64,000 nucleotides of DNA from Deroplatys truncata (Eukaryota > Arthropoda > Insecta > Mantodea > Mantidae): assembly GCA_030765065.1 (NCBI GenBank), contig CM060975.1, positions 197,006,507 to 197,070,506 of the forward strand, given 5' to 3'. Shown one piece after another: positions 21,257 through 64,000 of the stretch. Below the pieces are notes generated by a model. That model saw only the letters and a program-made list of their open reading frames with translations. It was not told the DNA's origin and searched no databases. Both the position numbers and the translations under genes were made by a program. Each line of letters starts with the position of its first letter. Position 1 is the first letter of the stretch.

Positions 21257-21870
21257 GTTCACCCTCTCTGAGAAGTTTTCTGCAATATAAGCGGAAAAGA
21301 TGGAAGTTAACAATGAGTGATGTTTCAGAATTCATCCACGTGGCATGGCAGCACTATAGTGCATAGGAGACAAAATGCTGGTCACGCCGCAACAGCGTAC
21401 TCAGTGTGTCACATGGTATGTGAAATGTGTTATATGAGATGTATGGGTTCTCAGTTCTCCAAATAATGCACTTACGCTTGGTGACTCGGCCACTCACATG
21501 AAATGTGGCTTTGTCCATGAATATCCATCGATTTAACCACTGATAGTCCGCTTTCTGCCTCTCACACGTCATGACAGCAAACTTGAGACGAGCTTCGTAA
21601 TTACGCTGCATCAAAGCTTGCTTTGGCTGAAACATCTTAAGGTACTGTCGATCAATCCTCCGATAGGGCATACTGAAGTCTGAAAGCTTGCTGAGTCCAA
21701 GTTGCATTTGAAAAGCTCGCATACCATATGACACATTGTGTGCGCTGTTGTGGCATGTCCACCATTTTGTCTCCTATGCACGATAGCGCTGCCATGTCAG
21801 CACTCATTGTTAACTTTCATCTTTTCTGCTTATATTACAGCGAACTGTTCGGAGATGTGTGCCTTAACGT
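21257..21870. mobile_element. Fold-back element built from a Tc1/mariner transposase gene
   Basis: The two flanks are inverted copies of each other over about 150 bp. Both contain GTTAACAATGAGTG, TGCATAGGAGACAAAATG and then the first codons of the same transposase. The left copy reads rightward from an ATG at 21375 and the right copy leftward from an ATG at 21765. One element has therefore been duplicated in inverse and deleted. Exact outer ends are uncertain because similarity fades. Confidence 0.75.
21420..21765 (-). pseudogene. Tc1/mariner transposase fragment
   Basis: The N-terminus read from 21765 is MVDMPQQRTQCVIWYA, an N-terminal motif of this transposase group. After a frame change comes MPYRRIDRQYLKMFQPKQAL, then WIFMDKATFHVSGRVTKRKC, then TENPYIS. 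FMDKATFHVSG is the region of the first catalytic Asp, usually written FSDEATFHVSG. Everything after this block is missing, including the second and third catalytic residues. The element is related to, but distinct from, the relic at 16234-17326. Confidence 0.8.
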
Positions 21871-56130: not shown

Positions 56131-56244
56131 GACAAAGCCGTATTAGCATTACTTCCCTACAATTTAACGAGTGATTCCAGAGCCCTTAAGGATACACATT
56201 GTGTAAATCACATTGAGTGAAATTCTTCAATAAGACCATTTTTA

Positions 56245-56300
56245 CTTTCCCTACTACTATAGTATTTAGGGAAAGTATTGTATTAAGCCCAAAAATTCCA
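56245..56300 (-). mobile_element. Family H element, terminal fragment
   Basis: Only the palindrome end (TACTTTCCCTACTACTATAG) and CCCAAAAATTCC remain, cut at about 56300 shortly before the inverted repeat at 56325. Confidence 0.75.
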
Positions 56301-56324
56301 TGTTTATATTAGTAGTAATAGTCG

Positions 56325-56465
56325 CGGATGAGCCAATTGTTTTAACGATAATCCTGCCGCTAGGGGCGCTAGTGTCGCTAGTGTCGCTGCGTGCGACGGC
56401 GGCGGCGGTAAGTTTGAAAAGCGCCCTGAGCGTTAGGATTATCGTTAAATCGGTTGGCTCATCCG
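56325..56465. repeat. GC-rich inverted repeat / MITE-like unit (141 bp)
   Basis: Left arm CGGATGAGCCAATTG.TTTAACGATAATCCT and the complement of the right arm agree over about 46 bp with few differences, starting CGGATGAGCCAA and ending GGGCGCT. The spacer is CG-rich (GTGTCGCTAGTGTCGCTGCG, CGACGGCGGCGGCGG). No clear target duplication. It could be a MITE or the boundary structure of the locus to its right. Confidence 0.75.
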
Positions 56466-57200
56466 GGACGAGTTGAAAGAATTGAGGAAGTGACGTGTAG
56501 TGTTTTGATTGGTTCGTTAATTTGGGGTGGGAGATGGAGGAAGGGAGATGGAGGAGTATGGAGGTCGCGTGATGGAGAGGAGCTGGGTGGCGAGGTGTTG
56601 TCTGTGCGGAGGTCGGTACTGAAATGGGGGAAAAGATGGGGAGCGAGGGATAAAAAGTGTAAAGGAAAGTGACGTGTGAAGTTGTGATTGGTGGGAATAA
56701 GAAGTGATGTTATTGGTGGAAAGGAGCAAATGAAGGTTGTTGATTGGTAAGAATAAGAGGGATTATGATTGGTGGAAAGAAAAAGGAGTGGGGTATGTTG
56801 GAGGTGATGGGAAAGGTGAGTTTTGCTAGCAGCAAGATTTGCAAAAGCCTGTCGTGAACTGATCAGCAATTTTTGAACGTCGGATGGTAGTTTTCTTGAG
56901 TGGATAGAGAGATGGGGGGCGATATGAGATGCGGTGGCGAAAATGGGAACTAAACAAGGTGTTTGAGACAAGAGGTTTAAGGACGAGGAAATTTTGAGGT
57001 TAGTGGTGAACATGGCGGTCGCAAGAGGTGGGGGTAAGGAGACGCAGTGGTGAGAATGGGAACTAAAAGAAGATGGGGGTAGCAAGAGTTTTAGAAGAGT
57101 AGATTTTGAGGTTAAAATAGTGGGAACTAAAAATGGCGGAGGGTCTGCGACAAGGAGATGCGGTGAGAACTAAACAAGATGGCGGACGCAAGAGGTGGGT
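56466..57200. promoter_or_regulatory. Purine-rich tandem block with CCAAT and GATGGCGG motifs
   Basis: The plus strand is G/A-rich. Five inverted CCAAT boxes (ATTGG) start at 56508, 56687, 56712, 56743 and 56768, with TGACGTGT (CRE-like) at 56491 and 56670. From about 56935 to 57200 a degenerate tandem array repeats GGGAACTAAA, ATGGCGG and GCAAGAGGTGGG. AAGATGGCGG at 57176-57185 matches the classical YY1-type core. It looks like a promoter or a minisatellite; no transcript start can be seen. The long frame on the minus strand is a by-product of base skew. Confidence 0.45.
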
Positions 57201-57310
57201 AAGGAGGTTTGAGGTTACAGTACCAAAACACGAAAGGATATATTCCTACGCCAAGCAGGTCCGAAAAATAATTATGCGTGTGGTACTTACCTGTTACCGG
57301 TGTGGATGCG

Positions 57311-59545
57311 TCACCAAAAGCGCGGCACGCGACGCCCGTGGAAAAAGTACGCGGTTTTTTCGGCCTCTCTGTACCCGTCCACCTTGAGCCCCACGATTTT
57401 AACTTCGCGTCCTCGCATGGCGTGCTGGATGACGATGCGGTTTTGCATCTCTAGCCAAGTTAGCCATATGCATGCGGCGCGAGACTGCCGGTCCGCTAGT
57501 CGATACCCGCCCGCTGGCAAGAGGGCAATTTTTTTAAGCGGCATGAAGCGCTTTCTATACACGCACATGCACGCCTGCGCGATGGTGACGCATTCTCTGA
57601 ACGGGTCTATTCCGTTCTCGTCCAAGAATTCCCTTCTGAATTTGGAAACTCCCTGACTCAGTAGAAATACGTCCATCTTGCAATACGCCACCATTTCCGC
57701 CCTCATGTCGAAGACGTGCCCGGAGGACGCCTTTTCTTCGTGCCACTGCTCGAAGGCTTTCCGACCCTCCGCCGACATGCCCTCAGGGCAGTAATGCCTT
57801 TTGTCGGGAATCGAACCCACGTACCGCTCGTTTTCCTTCGTGTTAAACAGGTACGGGAAATAACCTTTGCATTCCTTCAATCCGAAGGTCTTGGAAAAGC
57901 GGGAGAGTGGCATGGGTATGAAGTTGAGCGAGTCTAGAAATGTGACGTCACCGTACCTCATCCTGTAGATCTTGCTCCCGTTCATGATGAGCTCCGGGAT
58001 CCAGTCTAAGTGCGCCACCATGTACTTTAATAGAAACTGCCCGTCGTAAGCTCTGAGGTTATGCGCCACGACGTAGACGTCCCAGGCTTCGAATCTCGCT
58101 TGCGCGATGTGCTCGAAAAGCTGCTTCACGGGTTCGTCCGTGAACACCCATTCTTTGCAACCGCATTCCATGCAGTATGCCGTCTTGCGGCGTTCGTCGA
58201 TGCAGTGCGGGCAGGCTTGGTACAACACGCACAAGTTAGGTACATGCTCGTATGTGTCCTTTTTGCCGGTATATGGAATGTTTTGCGTGCATTCGAAGTC
58301 GATGAACATAAACACGTACCGGTTTCTTTTGTTCTTTGCGGCGTACGGCTGCATATAGCACATGTGGCTAGAATTCACGTGTGTCTTGCAATGATAGCAG
58401 TACTTTTCCCCGCACTCGTGCGCGGTTTTTCTGTACCTCGCATTCACGAGCTTGTTGCAAGACGTGCACACCTTTTCTACGTCGCACACCGACAGCGCCT
58501 TTGGGTAAAAAACGCCTTTCTTTGCGTGGTTTGCAAAGCATGTCGGTCCCTTAAAATCTCTGTTGCACCCGGCGCAGCGTATGTAGGCGTCGAATCGCGC
58601 ATCGCACTGCTGATGGCATTTAGCGCACCCGGCGTCGCACCTGTGAAATTCTTTTTTGTGTGCCGAGGGATGATGACACCGGCGGCAATACGATTTGCAT
58701 TTAAAGCACTTGTGAAGGTTCACGATGGCGTTAAAGTGCCCGGCGTGGAGCATGACGTCGATGTATTTATCGCATTTCTTATCCGACGCGTACAGCACGT
58801 GCTTCCCCGTATGATCGCCAAACACCGTCACAGCGTAGCCCTTTAACGCAGCGTCAAAGCGTCTGACGTCATCTATGGTGCAGCCGTCGTGGCCTTGACC
58901 GATGCTCGCGCACAAGGCTACGGCCTTCGATTTTTGCAGATAGTCGGAACGCGTCATCGTTCTGTAGTTGACGTCGCGATCCACTTTGGCTTTGCCTACA
59001 ACGATGGCTCTTGCTAAACACAAGTTGTCTTTGTTGGCTATTTCGACAATGCCTTTATTGCCCCTACAGGCATCGCAAGGTTGGTGGCACGAACCCGAGA
59101 CCTCCCTGGTCCACACAAACGTCACGTGAAGAGGCCCGCTTAGCAAGAATTGTTGGTTACTTTGCATTACTTTTTCGATGCTTCCAACAATGACATCCGC
59201 ATTCAATTGGTCTACGCGCCTAACGCTCATGTTGAAGGCTTTGGACGTCTCCTTTTCGTCTGTTATGGATATGCCTAAATATCCGGGTTCGTTTTCTAAC
59301 AGGTTCTCTTTCGCAAAGTTTAGAATATCGTTAAACAGATGCGATACCCATTGCTCGGGGTTGACATCTCTGGGGACCGGGTTTACGGTAATTTGAGACT
59401 CTGTAAAACCGGAAAAAAGCTTTGGCAGCGTTCTCTGCTTGTGCCCTATAATTTCGAACGTAGGCTGCAAGGTGTCATCGCGACTTCCCCCGGATTGCAT
59501 CTCCATCTTATCGTCCGAATGCGCCGATCGCTCTTTCCCCTGCAA
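57311..59545 (-). CDS. Polinton/Maverick-type protein-primed DNA polymerase B, fossil (N-terminal and exonuclease parts)
   Basis: A 744-codon open frame; the first ATG lies 13 codons inside it. Residues ~174-186 read DNLCLARAIVVGKA-like text found at the start of this polymerase group. Residues ~280-400 are rich in paired Cys and His and probably bind zinc. The 3'-5' exonuclease motifs follow in order: FIDFECTQ (~414-421), AHNLRAYDGQF (~494-504) and YCKMDV (~621-626), with FLDSLNF (~536) between. This is the front half of the family B polymerases that copy Polintons/adintoviruses from a protein primer. The palm half is not seen in the window, nor are capsid, ATPase, protease or integrase genes, so the element is broken, with at least one break. 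The long open frame suggests a rather young insertion. Codons are GC-richer than the surroundings, as expected of a foreign element. Confidence 0.88.
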   Translation of the reverse strand: MQGKERSAHSDDKMEMQSGGSRDDTLQPTFEIIGHKQRTLPKLFSGFTESQITVNPVPRDVNPEQWVSHLFNDILNFAKENLLENEPGYLGISITDEKETSKAFNMSVRRVDQLNADVIVGSIEKVMQSNQQFLLSGPLHVTFVWTREVSGSCHQPCDACRGNKGIVEIANKDNLCLARAIVVGKAKVDRDVNYRTMTRSDYLQKSKAVALCASIGQGHDGCTIDDVRRFDAALKGYAVTVFGDHTGKHVLYASDKKCDKYIDVMLHAGHFNAIVNLHKCFKCKSYCRRCHHPSAHKKEFHRCDAGCAKCHQQCDARFDAYIRCAGCNRDFKGPTCFANHAKKGVFYPKALSVCDVEKVCTSCNKLVNARYRKTAHECGEKYCYHCKTHVNSSHMCYMQPYAAKNKRNRYVFMFIDFECTQNIPYTGKKDTYEHVPNLCVLYQACPHCIDERRKTAYCMECGCKEWVFTDEPVKQLFEHIAQARFEAWDVYVVAHNLRAYDGQFLLKYMVAHLDWIPELIMNGSKIYRMRYGDVTFLDSLNFIPMPLSRFSKTFGLKECKGYFPYLFNTKENERYVGSIPDKRHYCPEGMSAEGRKAFEQWHEEKASSGHVFDMRAEMVAYCKMDVFLLSQGVSKFRREFLDENGIDPFRECVTIAQACMCVYRKRFMPLKKIALLPAGGYRLADRQSRAACIWLTWLEMQNRIVIQHAMRGREVKIVGLKVDGYREAEKTAYFFHGRRVPRFW

Positions 59546-60085
59546 AGTGCTGCTGCTATTTTGTTTTTTTTAGTTTAAACTATTTTTCGTCAAATAGAAC
59601 GATTTTGTAGAAAAACTCCCGCTATCGCAACGCTTCACTACGGGCGTTTGCTCTTAGCACAGGGTTTTTATAAGCTCGCTTATCAAAAACGCTGTTTCAT
59701 TATGCGCGTCGAGTTAAATGCCTCGTTTCGCAACAAAATTGTTACGTTTGTAAAAAAAACGCTGTCATTCTGCCACTATCCACCACTGCACGACCACCAC
59801 TGCAATAAGGCTGCATAAACGCTGACGAGTTTCCTTTTCTCACGCTCGTGTTACACACGTCGGCATACTTCCTTGTGCAGTGCTGCGCATGCAAAATGAC
59901 AAGCAAGCAAGCAGCGTTTTAACGTTTATGTACACTCGCGTCAGTACAATTTTTTAAAACTAACAACGCCGTGTGTGGTGTTTTTGTGTTGTGCAGTGCA
60001 TACGTGTTATGTAAAATGCGAGAAATAAAAAGAAGCAGCAGATACTTCCTTTCTAAGGAGTAACACCAACTGTTGAATGAAAATT
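59546..60085 (-). other. Leader of the polymerase locus (non-coding)
   Basis: GC-richer than the family H sequence to its right and without a long frame. It probably belongs to the Polinton-like element as its upstream region. Short repeats such as AAGCAAGCAAGC (near 59902) occur; no clear terminal inverted repeat was found by eye. Confidence 0.45.
59665..59672 (-). promoter_or_regulatory. TATA-box-like motif upstream of the polymerase frame
   Basis: TATAAAAA on the minus strand, about 120 bp upstream of the frame, within GCTTATAAAAACCCTGTGC. Position and sequence fit a core promoter for the polymerase; this is inferred only from the motif. Confidence 0.4.
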
Positions 60086-60089
60086 CTCA

Positions 60090-60892
60090 AGTGTTAACGT
60101 TCGTATCACCTCTAACCTCTGTCTCTTATAGGTGAGTACGAAAGTTTATTTTCATATCCACTTATTTTTAATCCGGTTAAACTTTTCGGGGAATGGTTGC
60201 ATCCGAAGGGACGCTATACACTGGCCTTAAAATTCTAAATTCTTTCCAACAACATGGCGGGGCAAGAACTGAAAAGCCACATGCTTTTAAAAAGAATGCT
60301 AAGCATTGTACAATTCGAACCATTTATAACAAATATCTCGGAAATGGCTGACGTCACAAAAACGTTATTTCAAATAAATTGTGTGTTTTTTTAAAAGAGA
60401 TCTAAATTTTTTTGTATTGTATGTTTTTTCTCAAACCTTAGCAGTTATACAAGATCGTAGAAAATTTCTTCCGAATCAAGAGGACTTCGCAGGCTATTTC
60501 CGCAAAATTCGAGATATACATTTTATTTTTCATATAAATGACTTTAATATATGGTGTTGTAATTAAAATCGTCAGAGGCAGTTTTAGAAAATAAAACATT
60601 TCGGAAAATAGTTCATGTAAATGGTAGTTTTGGGTGGAGGGACTTTCTTGTAAATCTCTGTGTCGTAACTTTTTGGAAGGTACTCAACCTAAATACCAAG
60701 TTTTAGTATTTATCCGACTTTTCATTTTTGAGTTATGCTGCTCTGACACATACACACAGAATTTTCTAAAAATGTTTTTTATTCAGGGGACCTCGAAACA
60801 AGTATTTAGTTTTTCCGGTGAAATCTCAATATTGAATATTTGGATGCAATGCATACCTCCTCTACCTACTATTTTACGTGGTAGAGAAAGCC
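60090..60892 (+). mobile_element. Family H element, full length, worn ends
   Basis: Left edge AAGTGTTAACGTTCGTATCA. Then ATATCTCGGAAATGGCTGAC, a shortened CACATACACACAG microsatellite, and the end CTACTATTTTACGTGGTAGA at 60863-60882. It borders the polymerase locus on the right. Confidence 0.82.
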
Positions 60893-60984
60893 CCCTAAAT
60901 CAATATTATTCCATGCAGTTGTGAAATGTGTTTCAGTGGGGTGAATAAAAATTAGTTTGTTGGTATCGTTATCACAGTACTGTT

Positions 60985-61405
60985 TCACTTGTGATATACC
61001 GTTCTCTTTGTATCAAAATGAAAAAAAGAAAAGTTAAAAGAATGACGTTTTTTAGTGAGAAAGGTCTAAAGCTTTTAAACATTAAAATCAACATGGAAAC
61101 TTTGTAAATAGACAACGCCTCAAAGTGATACTAATACACATAGATTGTGTGCTTTAACGTTCTTGTAAATAAGGCTTCGTTTCCTACGGTTTAACACTTT
61201 GTACAAAAGACATTCACAATGAGACTACTTCACAGCTATTCCCAGAAAATTGAAGTTATACATTTTATTTGTCGTGCAGATATCTTAAACATACCGCACC
61301 GTAATCAAAAGGGGTTAGAGCCGTTTTTAAGACAATAAAAATAACGAACTTTCTCCCGCTAAACGGGTAGTTTGCGGTGTGGGAATTTTCTTGAAAATCT
61401 ACGGT
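60985..61405 (+). mobile_element. Family H element, middle portion
   Basis: From about CACTTGTGATATACCGTTCTC through CTATTCCCAGAAAATTGAAG to GGAATTTTCTTGAAAATCTA. It ends where a minus copy begins, so the two meet head-on. Confidence 0.75.
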
Positions 61406-61416
61406 TTGTTAAATTT

Positions 61417-62009
61417 TTACTTTCTCTACTACGTATAGTAAGTAGGGGAAGTATTGCATTCCACCCAAAAATTCGATACCGAGATTTCACCGGAAATACG
61501 TGTTTTGAGACCTCCTGAATCCAAAAAAAGCATTTTTGGAAACATGTCCGTGTGTGTGTCTGTGAACAGCATAACTCAAAAACGAACAGTCGGATAAGCA
61601 CCAAACTCGGTATTTAGGTTCAGTATCTTCCAGACATGCGACACGAAGGTTTTCAAGAAAATCCCCCCCCCACCCCAGACTACCCTTTACATGGAAGATT
61701 TTTCGAAAATGGCTCTAACGATTTTGATTAAAATATCGCATGTTTAAGATAATGTTATGAGAAATGAAATGTATATCTCGAATTTTCTGGGAATGTCTCC
61801 AAAAGTATTCTTCATTGTGAACGACTTTTGCATAACTGGTAAACCATAAGAGATACACAAAATTTTACTACACATAAAATGTAGATCGCGTTAAAATACA
61901 CAATTTATGTCATATACATTTTTTTAGTTGAGTGAACCATTTTCGAGATATTGCTTGTTATTTCCTTAAATTTTCCAATACTTATACTTTTTCTCAAATG
62001 CGTTATTCA
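61417..62009 (-). mobile_element. Family H element, young, 3' part
   Basis: Palindrome CTACTACGTATAGTAAGTAG at 61428-61447, clean through the GT microsatellite to TTTCTCAAATGCGTTATTCA. There it runs directly into the next copy. The last 277 bp are repeated at 62620-62896. Confidence 0.9.
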
Positions 62010-62618
62010 TTTTTACTTTCTCTACTACGTATAGTAAGTAGGGGAAGTATTGCATTCCACCCAAAAAATTCGATACCGAAATTTCACTGCAAATACATGT
62101 TTTGAGAATCACTGAATCCAAAAAAAAAAAAAAGCATTTTTGGAAACATGTCCGTGTGTGTGTCTGTCTGTGTCTGTGTGTCTGTCTGTCTGTGCGTCTG
62201 TGTGTCTGTGAACAGCATAACTCAAAAACGAACAGTCGGATAAACACCAAACTTGGTATTTAGGTTCAGTATCTTCCAGAGATGCGACACGAAGGTTTTC
62301 AAGAAAATCCCCCCACCCCAGACTACCCTTTACATGGAACATTTTTCGAAAATTTTAATTTTCTCAAAAACGGCTCTAACGATTTTGATTAAAATATCAT
62401 ATGTTTAAGATATTGTCATGACAAATAAAATGTATATCTCGAATTTTCTGGGAATGTCTCCAAAATATTCTTCTTTGTGAACGACTTTTGCATAACTGGT
62501 AAACCATAAGAGATAGACAAAATTTTACTACACAAAAAATGTAGATCGCGTTAAAATACACAACTTATGTCATATACGTTTCTTTTGTTGAGTGAACCGT
62601 TTTCGAGATATTGCTTGT
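62010..62618 (-). mobile_element. Family H element, young, 3' part (first tandem unit)
   Basis: Palindrome at 62021-62040. A long GTGTCTGTCTGTGTCTG microsatellite at 62153-62210. It stops at GAGATATTGCTTGTTA, the junction of the tandem duplication. Confidence 0.9.
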
Positions 62619-62619
62619 T

Positions 62620-62896
62620 AAAATCGCATGTTTAAGATAATGTTATGAGAAATGAAATGTATATCTCGAATTTTCTGGGAATGTCTCCAAAAGTATTCTT
62701 CATTGTGAACGACTTTTGCATAACTGGTAAACCATAAGAGATACACAAAATTTTACTACACATAAAATGTAGATCGCGTTAAAATACACAATTTGTCATA
62801 TACATTTTTTTAGTTGAGTGAACCATTTTCGAGATATTGCTTGTTATTTCCTTAAATTTTCCAATACTTATACTTTTTCTCAAATGCGTTATTCAT
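62620..62896 (-). mobile_element. Family H element, duplicated tail
   Basis: Nearly identical to 61733-62009, including the ATGTTATGAGAAATGAAATG block that differs from neighbouring copies. It is therefore a duplicate of that piece rather than an independent insertion. Confidence 0.9.
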
Positions 62897-63705
62897 TTTT
62901 ACTTTCTCTACTACGTATAGTAAGTAGGGGAAGTATTGCATTCCACCCAAAAATTCGATACCGAAATGTCACTGCAAATACATGTTTTGAGAATCACTGA
63001 ATCCAAAAAAAAAAAAGCATTTTTGGAAACATGTCCGTGTGTGTCTGTCTGTGTCTGTGTGTCTGTGTGTCTGTCTGTCTGTGCGTCTGTGTGTCTGTGA
63101 ACAGCATAACTCAAAAACGAACAGTCGGATAAACACCAAACTTGGTATTTAGGTTCAGTATCTTCCAGAGATGCCACACGAAGGTTTTCAAGAAAATCCC
63201 CCCACCCCAGACTACCCTTTACATGGAACATTTTTCGAAAATTTTAATTTTCTCAAAAACGGGTCTAACGATTTTGATTAAAATATCATATGTTTAAGAT
63301 ATTGTCATGACAAATAAAATGTATATCTCGAATTTTCTGGGAATGTCTCCAAAATATTCTTCATTGTGAACGACTTTTGCATAACTGGTAAACCATAAGA
63401 GATAGACAAAATTTTACTACACAAAAAATGTAGATCGCGTTAAAATACACAACTTATGTCATATACGTTTCTTTTGTTGAGTGAACCGTTTTCGAGATAT
63501 TGCTTGTTATTTCCTTAAATTTTCCAATACTTATACTTTTTCTCAAATTCGTTTATTCATTTTTTTTTATGTCCTGAACATGCAAACAGAATGGAATTCG
63601 CCACATAGCAACCAGCGATAAAATATTTGACTATCGCTTAAAAGCTACCAATTAGATTGTACAAGAGTAGAGAAAGTCATGTCAGTGTAACACATCAGTT
63701 TTTTT
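62897..63705 (-). mobile_element. Family H element, young, full length (second tandem unit)
   Basis: The first ~610 bp are almost identical to 62010-62618, differing by a few bases and microsatellite length. It then continues through TGACTATCGCTTAAAAGCTA to the true edge GTGTAACACATCAG at 63687-63700. Confidence 0.92.
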
Positions 63706-63904
63706 TATACGCTACTATTTTAGTGTGTGTGTGTGCGCGCGCGCGCGAGTACGTGCCTAGGAACCGTGCGCCACAAGCCAAAACGACGACGTTATAGAAA
63801 AACTTTATCATTTGCCTACCGGCCAGGGACAACCGCTAAAAAACCTGAAAAAAAGCTCTAAGAGTATTCTAACGCTTACCGATCTGGAAAACCCTTGAAA
63901 ACAA
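63706..63904. other. Spacer with GT/GC microsatellite
   Basis: A GT then GC dinucleotide run at 63723-63748, followed by unique-looking sequence. Confidence 0.6.
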
Positions 63905-64000
63905 GATAGTACACTTTTGAGATATTGCTTGTTATTTCCTTAAATTTTTCAATACTTTTTTACTTTCTCTACTACGTATAGTAAGTAGGGGAAGTATTGC
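63905..64000 (-). mobile_element. Family H pieces running off the window edge
   Basis: A short internal fragment TTTTGAGATATTGCTTGTTA joins straight to a new palindrome end, ACTTTCTCTACTACGTATAG, at 63962-63981. The same join as at 62009/62010 and 62896/62897 suggests the array continues beyond the window. Confidence 0.88.

What the first reader, a model, noticed from the sequence alone, without database searches (positions are those of the whole stretch)
56325..60085. Polinton-like polymerase fossil in a repeat-dense locus
Seen: a 744-codon frame with a Cys/His-rich region and three exonuclease motifs (FIDFECTQ, AHNLRAYDGQF, YCKMDV) in the right order. Known: this combination marks protein-primed family B polymerases of Polintons/Mavericks and adintoviruses. 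Inferred: a broken, fairly young element, since no other Polinton gene is recognised here yet a long frame survives. The locus is GC-richer than its flanks.
Basis: partly seen in the sequence, partly recalled or inferred. Interest (0 to 1): 0.75.

Follow-up and report, generated by a model that had tools for sequence, protein, structure and literature searches.

The report
Broken Maverick virus polymerase gene remnant
This is the front half of a DNA-copying gene that a virus-like mobile element (Maverick/Polinton or adintovirus type) left in this genome; it still reads cleanly, which suggests a young relic, but the part that copies DNA is missing, so it looks like an ordinary, well-kept viral fossil.

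Summary
A 752-codon open frame (57311..59569, minus strand) carries exonuclease motifs I-III behind a Cys/His-rich region, in a GC-rich insert (~56302..60136) between dispersed repeats. Pfam gives one family, DNA_pol_B_2 (7e-21), over the exonuclease half only. A recalled-motif scan of prokaryote assemblies returned four contigs, each with a related family B polymerase frame; the three with examined neighbours show a retrovirus-type integrase (one below Pfam's cut-off). The window protein aligns to three of them from its vOTU-like protease region to the start of a Vsr-endonuclease-like insertion and stops at residue 745. In the literature that insertion marks group I Mavericks. No palm domain, integrase or ATPase like those of the relatives was found in the window. 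Where it exists the frame shows little sign of decay: it keeps 85 of 108 columns identical in three relatives, which keep 85 of 104-106. So it is a truncated, probably young relic of a group I Maverick/adintovirus-type polymerase. Host identity, copy number and expression are untested: the genome search did not complete.

The parts
56302..60136 (.). Insert between dispersed repeats; approximate borders, no terminal inverted repeats or target-site duplication identified
   Evidence: Repeat homology ends at 56301 and resumes at about 60137; composition shift; repeat scan
57311..59569 (-). Open reading frame, 752 codons, front half of a family B DNA polymerase of the protein-primed kind (P0001)
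59105..59407 (-). Residues 55-155, predicted beta-alpha-beta-beta-alpha-beta region at the place of the terminal-protein domain; low model confidence
   Evidence: block pLDDT 34-55; Foldseek PDB list led by Y-family polymerases, the likeness published for polinton terminal-protein domains; aligned range not printed by the tool; no sequence match to relatives
58715..59047 (-). Residues 175-285, vOTU-like cysteine protease region with Cys184 (59018-59020) and His278 (58736-58738)
   Evidence: Cys and His identical in P0001 and all 4 relatives; profile of three relatives matches residues 150-300 alone, E 4e-18
58358..58687 (-). Residues 295-404, Cys/His-rich, probably zinc-binding
   Evidence: Cys/His columns shared with three relatives; residues 290-412 alone match their profile, E 4e-14 but with a strong composition bias
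57527..58321 (-). Residues 417-681, 3'-5' exonuclease domain with motifs I, II and III
57335..57499 (-). Residues 691-745, first part of the Vsr-endonuclease-like insertion; homology ends here
   Evidence: Residues 691-752 alone match L014 8e-11, L013 4e-9; profile of the region matches PDB Vsr endonuclease at 0.0014; tblastn alignments of L011-L014 end at 57335

Best explanation
[quoted passage not shown] What is left encodes, in order, a possible terminal-protein (priming) domain, a vOTU-like protease, a Cys/His-rich region, an exonuclease with its catalytic residues in place, and the first part of the Vsr-like insertion. In an intact element the N-terminal domain would be linked to the first nucleotide, the vOTU would cut it free (hypothesis of PMC11071308), the palm would extend and the exonuclease would proofread. 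Here the palm, the rest of the insertion and the other element genes are gone, so it should not be able to synthesise DNA or move by itself. Shown: homology, domain order, missing parts in this window, little protein decay. Inferred: that it was integrated as part of a larger element and cut down; that it is young; that it is not expressed for a purpose.
For: Pfam 7e-21 over the exonuclease half of DNA_pol_B_2; PHROG DNA polymerase 5.7e-14. Four of four contigs returned by a Vsr-motif scan encode relatives: tblastn 4e-72, 2e-62, 1e-43, 2e-7. In three of the four (L011, L013, L014) neighbours were tested with Pfam: all three have an rve integrase match (L013's, 22.1 bits, is below the cut-off of 32.6), two with a chromodomain, and L011 and L014 have ATPase frames with best hits Pox_A32 and Adeno_IVa2. 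The C-terminal alignments to all four end at 57335. Fourteen proteins from L011-L014 and a palm profile find no other piece in 64 kb. P0001 keeps 85/108 columns identical in three relatives; those keep 85/106, 85/105, 85/104. Simulated neutral decay leaves the frame whole in 28% of runs at 0.5% divergence, 7% at 1%, 0.4% at 2%. BFVD: 13 matches at E 1e-3 or better, 11 named DNA polymerases (adintovirus, densovirus-labelled, adenovirus, mavirus and others).
Against: No terminal inverted repeats or target-site duplication found (and by eye). The genome was not searchable, so neither a parent element nor other copies were shown. The best fold match in BFVD is a polymerase from a bird-associated densovirus record, not an adintovirus, and TM-scores of the 13 matches are at most 0.28. 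In the vOTU region P0001 keeps fewer shared columns (13/20) than the relatives (13/16, 13/17, 13/19), which could be mild decay. The N-terminal 150 residues match no relative by sequence. A TATA box upstream and one donor-like site downstream could fit a captured gene, though the donor site is within chance.
Confidence: 0.85

Rival explanations
1. The fragment comes from an endogenous bidnavirus (densovirus-like virus with a protein-primed polymerase), which would explain a polymerase gene without other Polinton genes.
For: Top BFVD fold match is a polymerase from a densovirus record; bidnaviruses carry an alpha-adintovirus-type PolB (PMC11071296, passages); no integrase or ATPase like the relatives' in the window.
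Against: The vOTU Cys and His are intact here and in all four relatives, whereas bidnavirids have replaced them (PMC11071308 section 9). Three relatives lie next to integrase frames. Truncation alone explains the missing genes.
Confidence: 0.07
2. A domesticated gene: the host keeps the N-terminal half as a protein, for instance one that interferes with protein-primed replication or works as a protease or nuclease.
For: Unbroken 752-codon frame with little protein decay; TATA box at 59665-59672 upstream; catalytic residues of protease and exonuclease kept.
Against: A young insertion gives the same picture. The frame's homology ends in the middle of a domain. No expression or conservation data.
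Confidence: 0.06
3. The gene is not truncated: the rest lies outside the window, across a very long intron or an assembly join.
For: One donor-like CAGGTAAGT on the coding strand at 57285-57293, just past the stop.
Against: That site is expected 0.41 times in the window by chance. Three of the four relatives (L011, L013, L014) encode exonuclease, insertion and palm motif C in one frame. No continuation in the 57 kb downstream.
Confidence: 0.02

Closest known systems
Group I Maverick/Polinton protein-primed DNA polymerase (with Vsr-like insertion)
   Same: Order of vOTU, Cys/His-rich region, exonuclease, Vsr-like insertion; 29% identity to L011 over residues 127-745 and 28% to L013 over 119-745
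   Different: Lacks the rest of the insertion and the palm; no integrase, ATPase or terminal repeats found in the window
Adintovirus PolB
   Same: N-terminal OTU-like domain (PMC11071296, passages); second-best BFVD match is an adintovirus polymerase, E 3.5e-12
   Different: No integrase here; hexon not tested with an adintovirus hexon; alpha or beta class not resolved, no named reference sequences were available for a tree
Bidnavirus/densovirus-labelled PolB
   Same: Best BFVD fold match, E 6e-13
   Different: Published bidnavirid vOTU active site is replaced; it is intact here
phi29 DNA polymerase exonuclease domain
   Different: Prokaryotic pPolBs lack the extended N-terminal regions (PMC11071308 section 6); only the exonuclease is comparable
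Maverick integrations in placental mammals (PMC9683012, abstract)
   Same: Endogenous Maverick remnants in a host genome
   Different: Those are dated to about 102 million years; this frame is still open

Membership tests
Eukaryotic protein-primed PolB (Polinton/Maverick, adintovirus) | Exonuclease motifs I-III of family B | tested here: met
Eukaryotic protein-primed PolB (Polinton/Maverick, adintovirus) | vOTU-like domain with catalytic Cys and His | tested here: met
   Cys184 and His278 identical in 5 of 5 aligned sequences; by homology and residues only, the fold was not modelled with confidence
Eukaryotic protein-primed PolB (Polinton/Maverick, adintovirus) | N-terminal terminal-protein domain with little-finger/PAD fold | tested here: inconclusive
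   Y-family polymerase chains lead the Foldseek PDB list at E about 1e-3, none at or below 0.001; the model is weak there, the range is not printed, and residues 1-150 show no significant sequence match to relatives
Eukaryotic protein-primed PolB (Polinton/Maverick, adintovirus) | Palm domain with motifs A, B, C and TPR subdomains | tested here: not met
   Motif scan, six-frame Pfam scans of the insert and its near flanks, palm profile and relatives against the whole window: absent
Group I Maverick polymerase | About 140-residue Vsr-like insertion | tested here: met
   Only its first part is present (residues 691-745); it matches the relatives' insertions, and the profile of all five matches PDB Vsr endonuclease at 0.0014; definition from PMC10328495 section 9
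Polinton/Maverick or adintovirus element | rve integrase and packaging ATPase | tested here: not met
   Integrases and ATPases of L011, L013 (integrase only), L014 find nothing in the window
Polinton/Maverick or adintovirus element | Capsid genes | tested here: inconclusive
   Five other frames of L011 and L013, of unproven function, find nothing; no proven capsid sequence was available
Polinton/Maverick or adintovirus element | Terminal inverted repeats and 6-bp target-site duplication (recalled) | tested here: inconclusive
   None found; borders are approximate
Bidnavirus PolB | vOTU active site replaced | tested here: not met
   Cys/His intact against PMC11071308 section 9

The most novel reading that the evidence does not exclude
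The front half was kept by the host: an expressed terminal-protein/vOTU/exonuclease protein without a polymerase that binds the priming machinery or ends of related Mavericks and adintoviruses and blocks their protein-primed replication.
Probability: 0.05. Interest if true: 0.75.

Novelty: new member of a known kind. Interest (0 to 1): 0.3.

Why it matters
It suggests that a group I-type (Vsr-bearing) Maverick or adintovirus polymerase entered this host recently enough to leave an open frame. Otherwise it is one more remnant of a well-known group.

Tried and rejected
IMG/VR gave no relatives: protein queries, a generic exonuclease-II pattern (6 loci, best tblastn E 0.21; frames listed for L001, L003 and L006 only), the Vsr motif (4 loci, none related), a KGYFP-type pattern (1 locus, L015, best tblastn E 0.18), alignment queries A2 and A4. 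Phage records gave nothing at DNA level and two hits at E 0.6 and 0.8 for P0001. PDB sequence search with P0001 and with its C-terminal piece alone: no match; Pfam on the C-terminal piece, an overlapping frame and the N-terminal piece: no match. Rfam and tRNA scans of the window: nothing. Structure of P0001 without an alignment was useless (pLDDT 33.9); with three relatives parts of the exonuclease became usable, the rest stayed weak. OTU, little-finger and Vsr folds do not appear in the 50 VIA-align rows shown, as the exonuclease fills the list; this says nothing about those parts. Ten other frames of the window: no Pfam family above cut-off. Below-cut-off Pfam hits in 60137-64000 (ApaLI-like, HK97 gp10-like, FANCA) taken as chance. 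A tree was not made: five sequences and no named references are too few.

Full report
What is there. A single long frame runs from 59569 down to 57311 on the minus strand, 752 codons stop to stop, first Met at residue 22. The chance of such a frame at local composition is about 2e-11 over the whole window. Codon positions differ sharply in base composition. The frame sits in an insert that is richer in G+C and CpG than its flanks; diverged dispersed repeats end at 56301 on the left and resume at about 60137 on the right.

What it is. Pfam gives DNA_pol_B_2 at 7e-21, but only profile positions 9-196 of 468, the exonuclease half. PHROGs agrees on DNA polymerase. No PDB sequence matched. The quoted exonuclease motifs are present letter for letter. 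IMG/VR and phage records gave no useful relative. A scan of prokaryote species genomes for an FHGC-type motif, which I recall from Maverick polymerases, returned four contigs, and all four encode long polymerase frames that align to the window protein: L011 4e-72, L013 2e-62, L012 1e-43, L014 2e-7. The contigs are titled as bacterial MAGs. L011, L013 and L014 also have frames matching the rve integrase family (45.9, 22.1 and 50.1 bits; cut-off 32.6, so L013's falls below it), with chromodomains in L011 and L014, and L011 and L014 have ATPase frames whose best Pfam hits are Pox_A32 and Adeno_IVa2, both just above cut-off. I take these three as Maverick/adintovirus contigs that were mis-binned (inference). 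L012 is a 3.6-kb contig; one 199-codon frame follows the polymerase on the same strand and was not searched.

What is missing. The C-terminal tblastn alignments of all four relatives end at the same base, 57335, inside the Vsr-like insertion. A palm profile from the relatives, tested on 2,208 stop-free pieces of the six frames, gave nothing better than E 1.6; of fourteen proteins of the relatives (four polymerases, three integrases, two ATPases, five others) only the polymerases match, and only at this locus; the rest reach E 0.12 at best. Pfam on six frames of the insert and of 4.9 kb to the left and 3.9 kb to the right, stops as X, gave only DNA_pol_B_2 above cut-off. No terminal inverted repeats bracket the insert. 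So it is not a Polinton element; it is a remnant of one gene of such an element.

Age. The frame keeps 85 of the 108 columns at which the three closest relatives agree, and each of those keeps 85 of 104-106 by the same leave-one-out count (the 85 is shared by construction, the comparison lies in the denominators; L014 left out). By region it is about level with them in the Cys/His-rich, exonuclease and Vsr-like parts and slightly lower in the vOTU part (13/20 against 13/16, 13/17, 13/19). Simulated neutral decay (2:1 transitions, 0.12 indels per substitution, assumed) leaves the frame whole in 77% of runs at 0.1%, 52% at 0.25%, 28% at 0.5%, 7% at 1% and 0.4% at 2% divergence. Either the insertion is young or the protein is under selection; youth is the simpler reading. 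No date can be given without the host's mutation rate.

What it does. Most likely nothing now: without a palm it should not copy DNA, and without integrase it should not move. The protease and exonuclease residues are intact, so the product, if made, might retain those activities (inference). A TATA box lies at 59665-59672 on the coding strand and four of the window's six AAACGCTG copies cluster at 59687-59919, so the viral promoter region may have come along (inference).

Limits. The host genome search did not complete in 28 tries, so copy number, parent element, synteny and host identity are open. No tree with named references could be made.

Noticed in passing
56321-56469: Hairpin-forming sequence, 50-nt arms 84% complementary with 49 nt between; looks like a small inverted-repeat element at the left edge of the insert. 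No other copy of its arm in the window.
   Followed up: partly
56470-57210: G/A-rich stretch with short imperfect repeats, including three copies (71-100% alike) of a 24-nt unit with an ATGGCGG-like core.
   Followed up: no
59687-59919: Four of the window's six AAACGCTG copies cluster upstream of the frame; shuffles of the window give 1.96 on average, at most 5. Motif chosen after seeing it.
   Followed up: partly
57285-57293: Splice-donor-like CAGGTAAGT on the coding strand just after the stop codon; 33 of 100 shuffles have one or more.
   Followed up: partly
56238-56301 and 60209-60890: Dispersed repeat units with a palindromic end (CTACTAC-TATAGTA type) flank the insert in opposite orientation and recur through the window.
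   Followed up: partly
21354-21773: 139-codon minus-strand frame that reminded me of insect Tc1-like transposases (recalled); Pfam gave only DUF3237 at 0.082, below cut-off.
   Followed up: partly
L014 and window 57335-57499: By blastp the Vsr-like piece is most like L014 (43%; L013 41%), while the exonuclease is most like L011-L013 (35-38% against 23% for L014): the insertion may be exchanged between element lineages.
   Followed up: no
L011-L014: Four contigs titled as bacterial MAGs (one a tubeworm endosymbiont) encode Maverick/adintovirus-type polymerases, so such MAGs can hold eukaryotic virus DNA.
   Followed up: partly
Vibrio phage MT366761 6075-6530; Salicola phage MF360958 112573-112788: Hypothetical phage proteins match L013 polymerase residues 726-872 and 804-875, around the Vsr-like insertion, at 2e-7 and 3e-7.
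   Followed up: no
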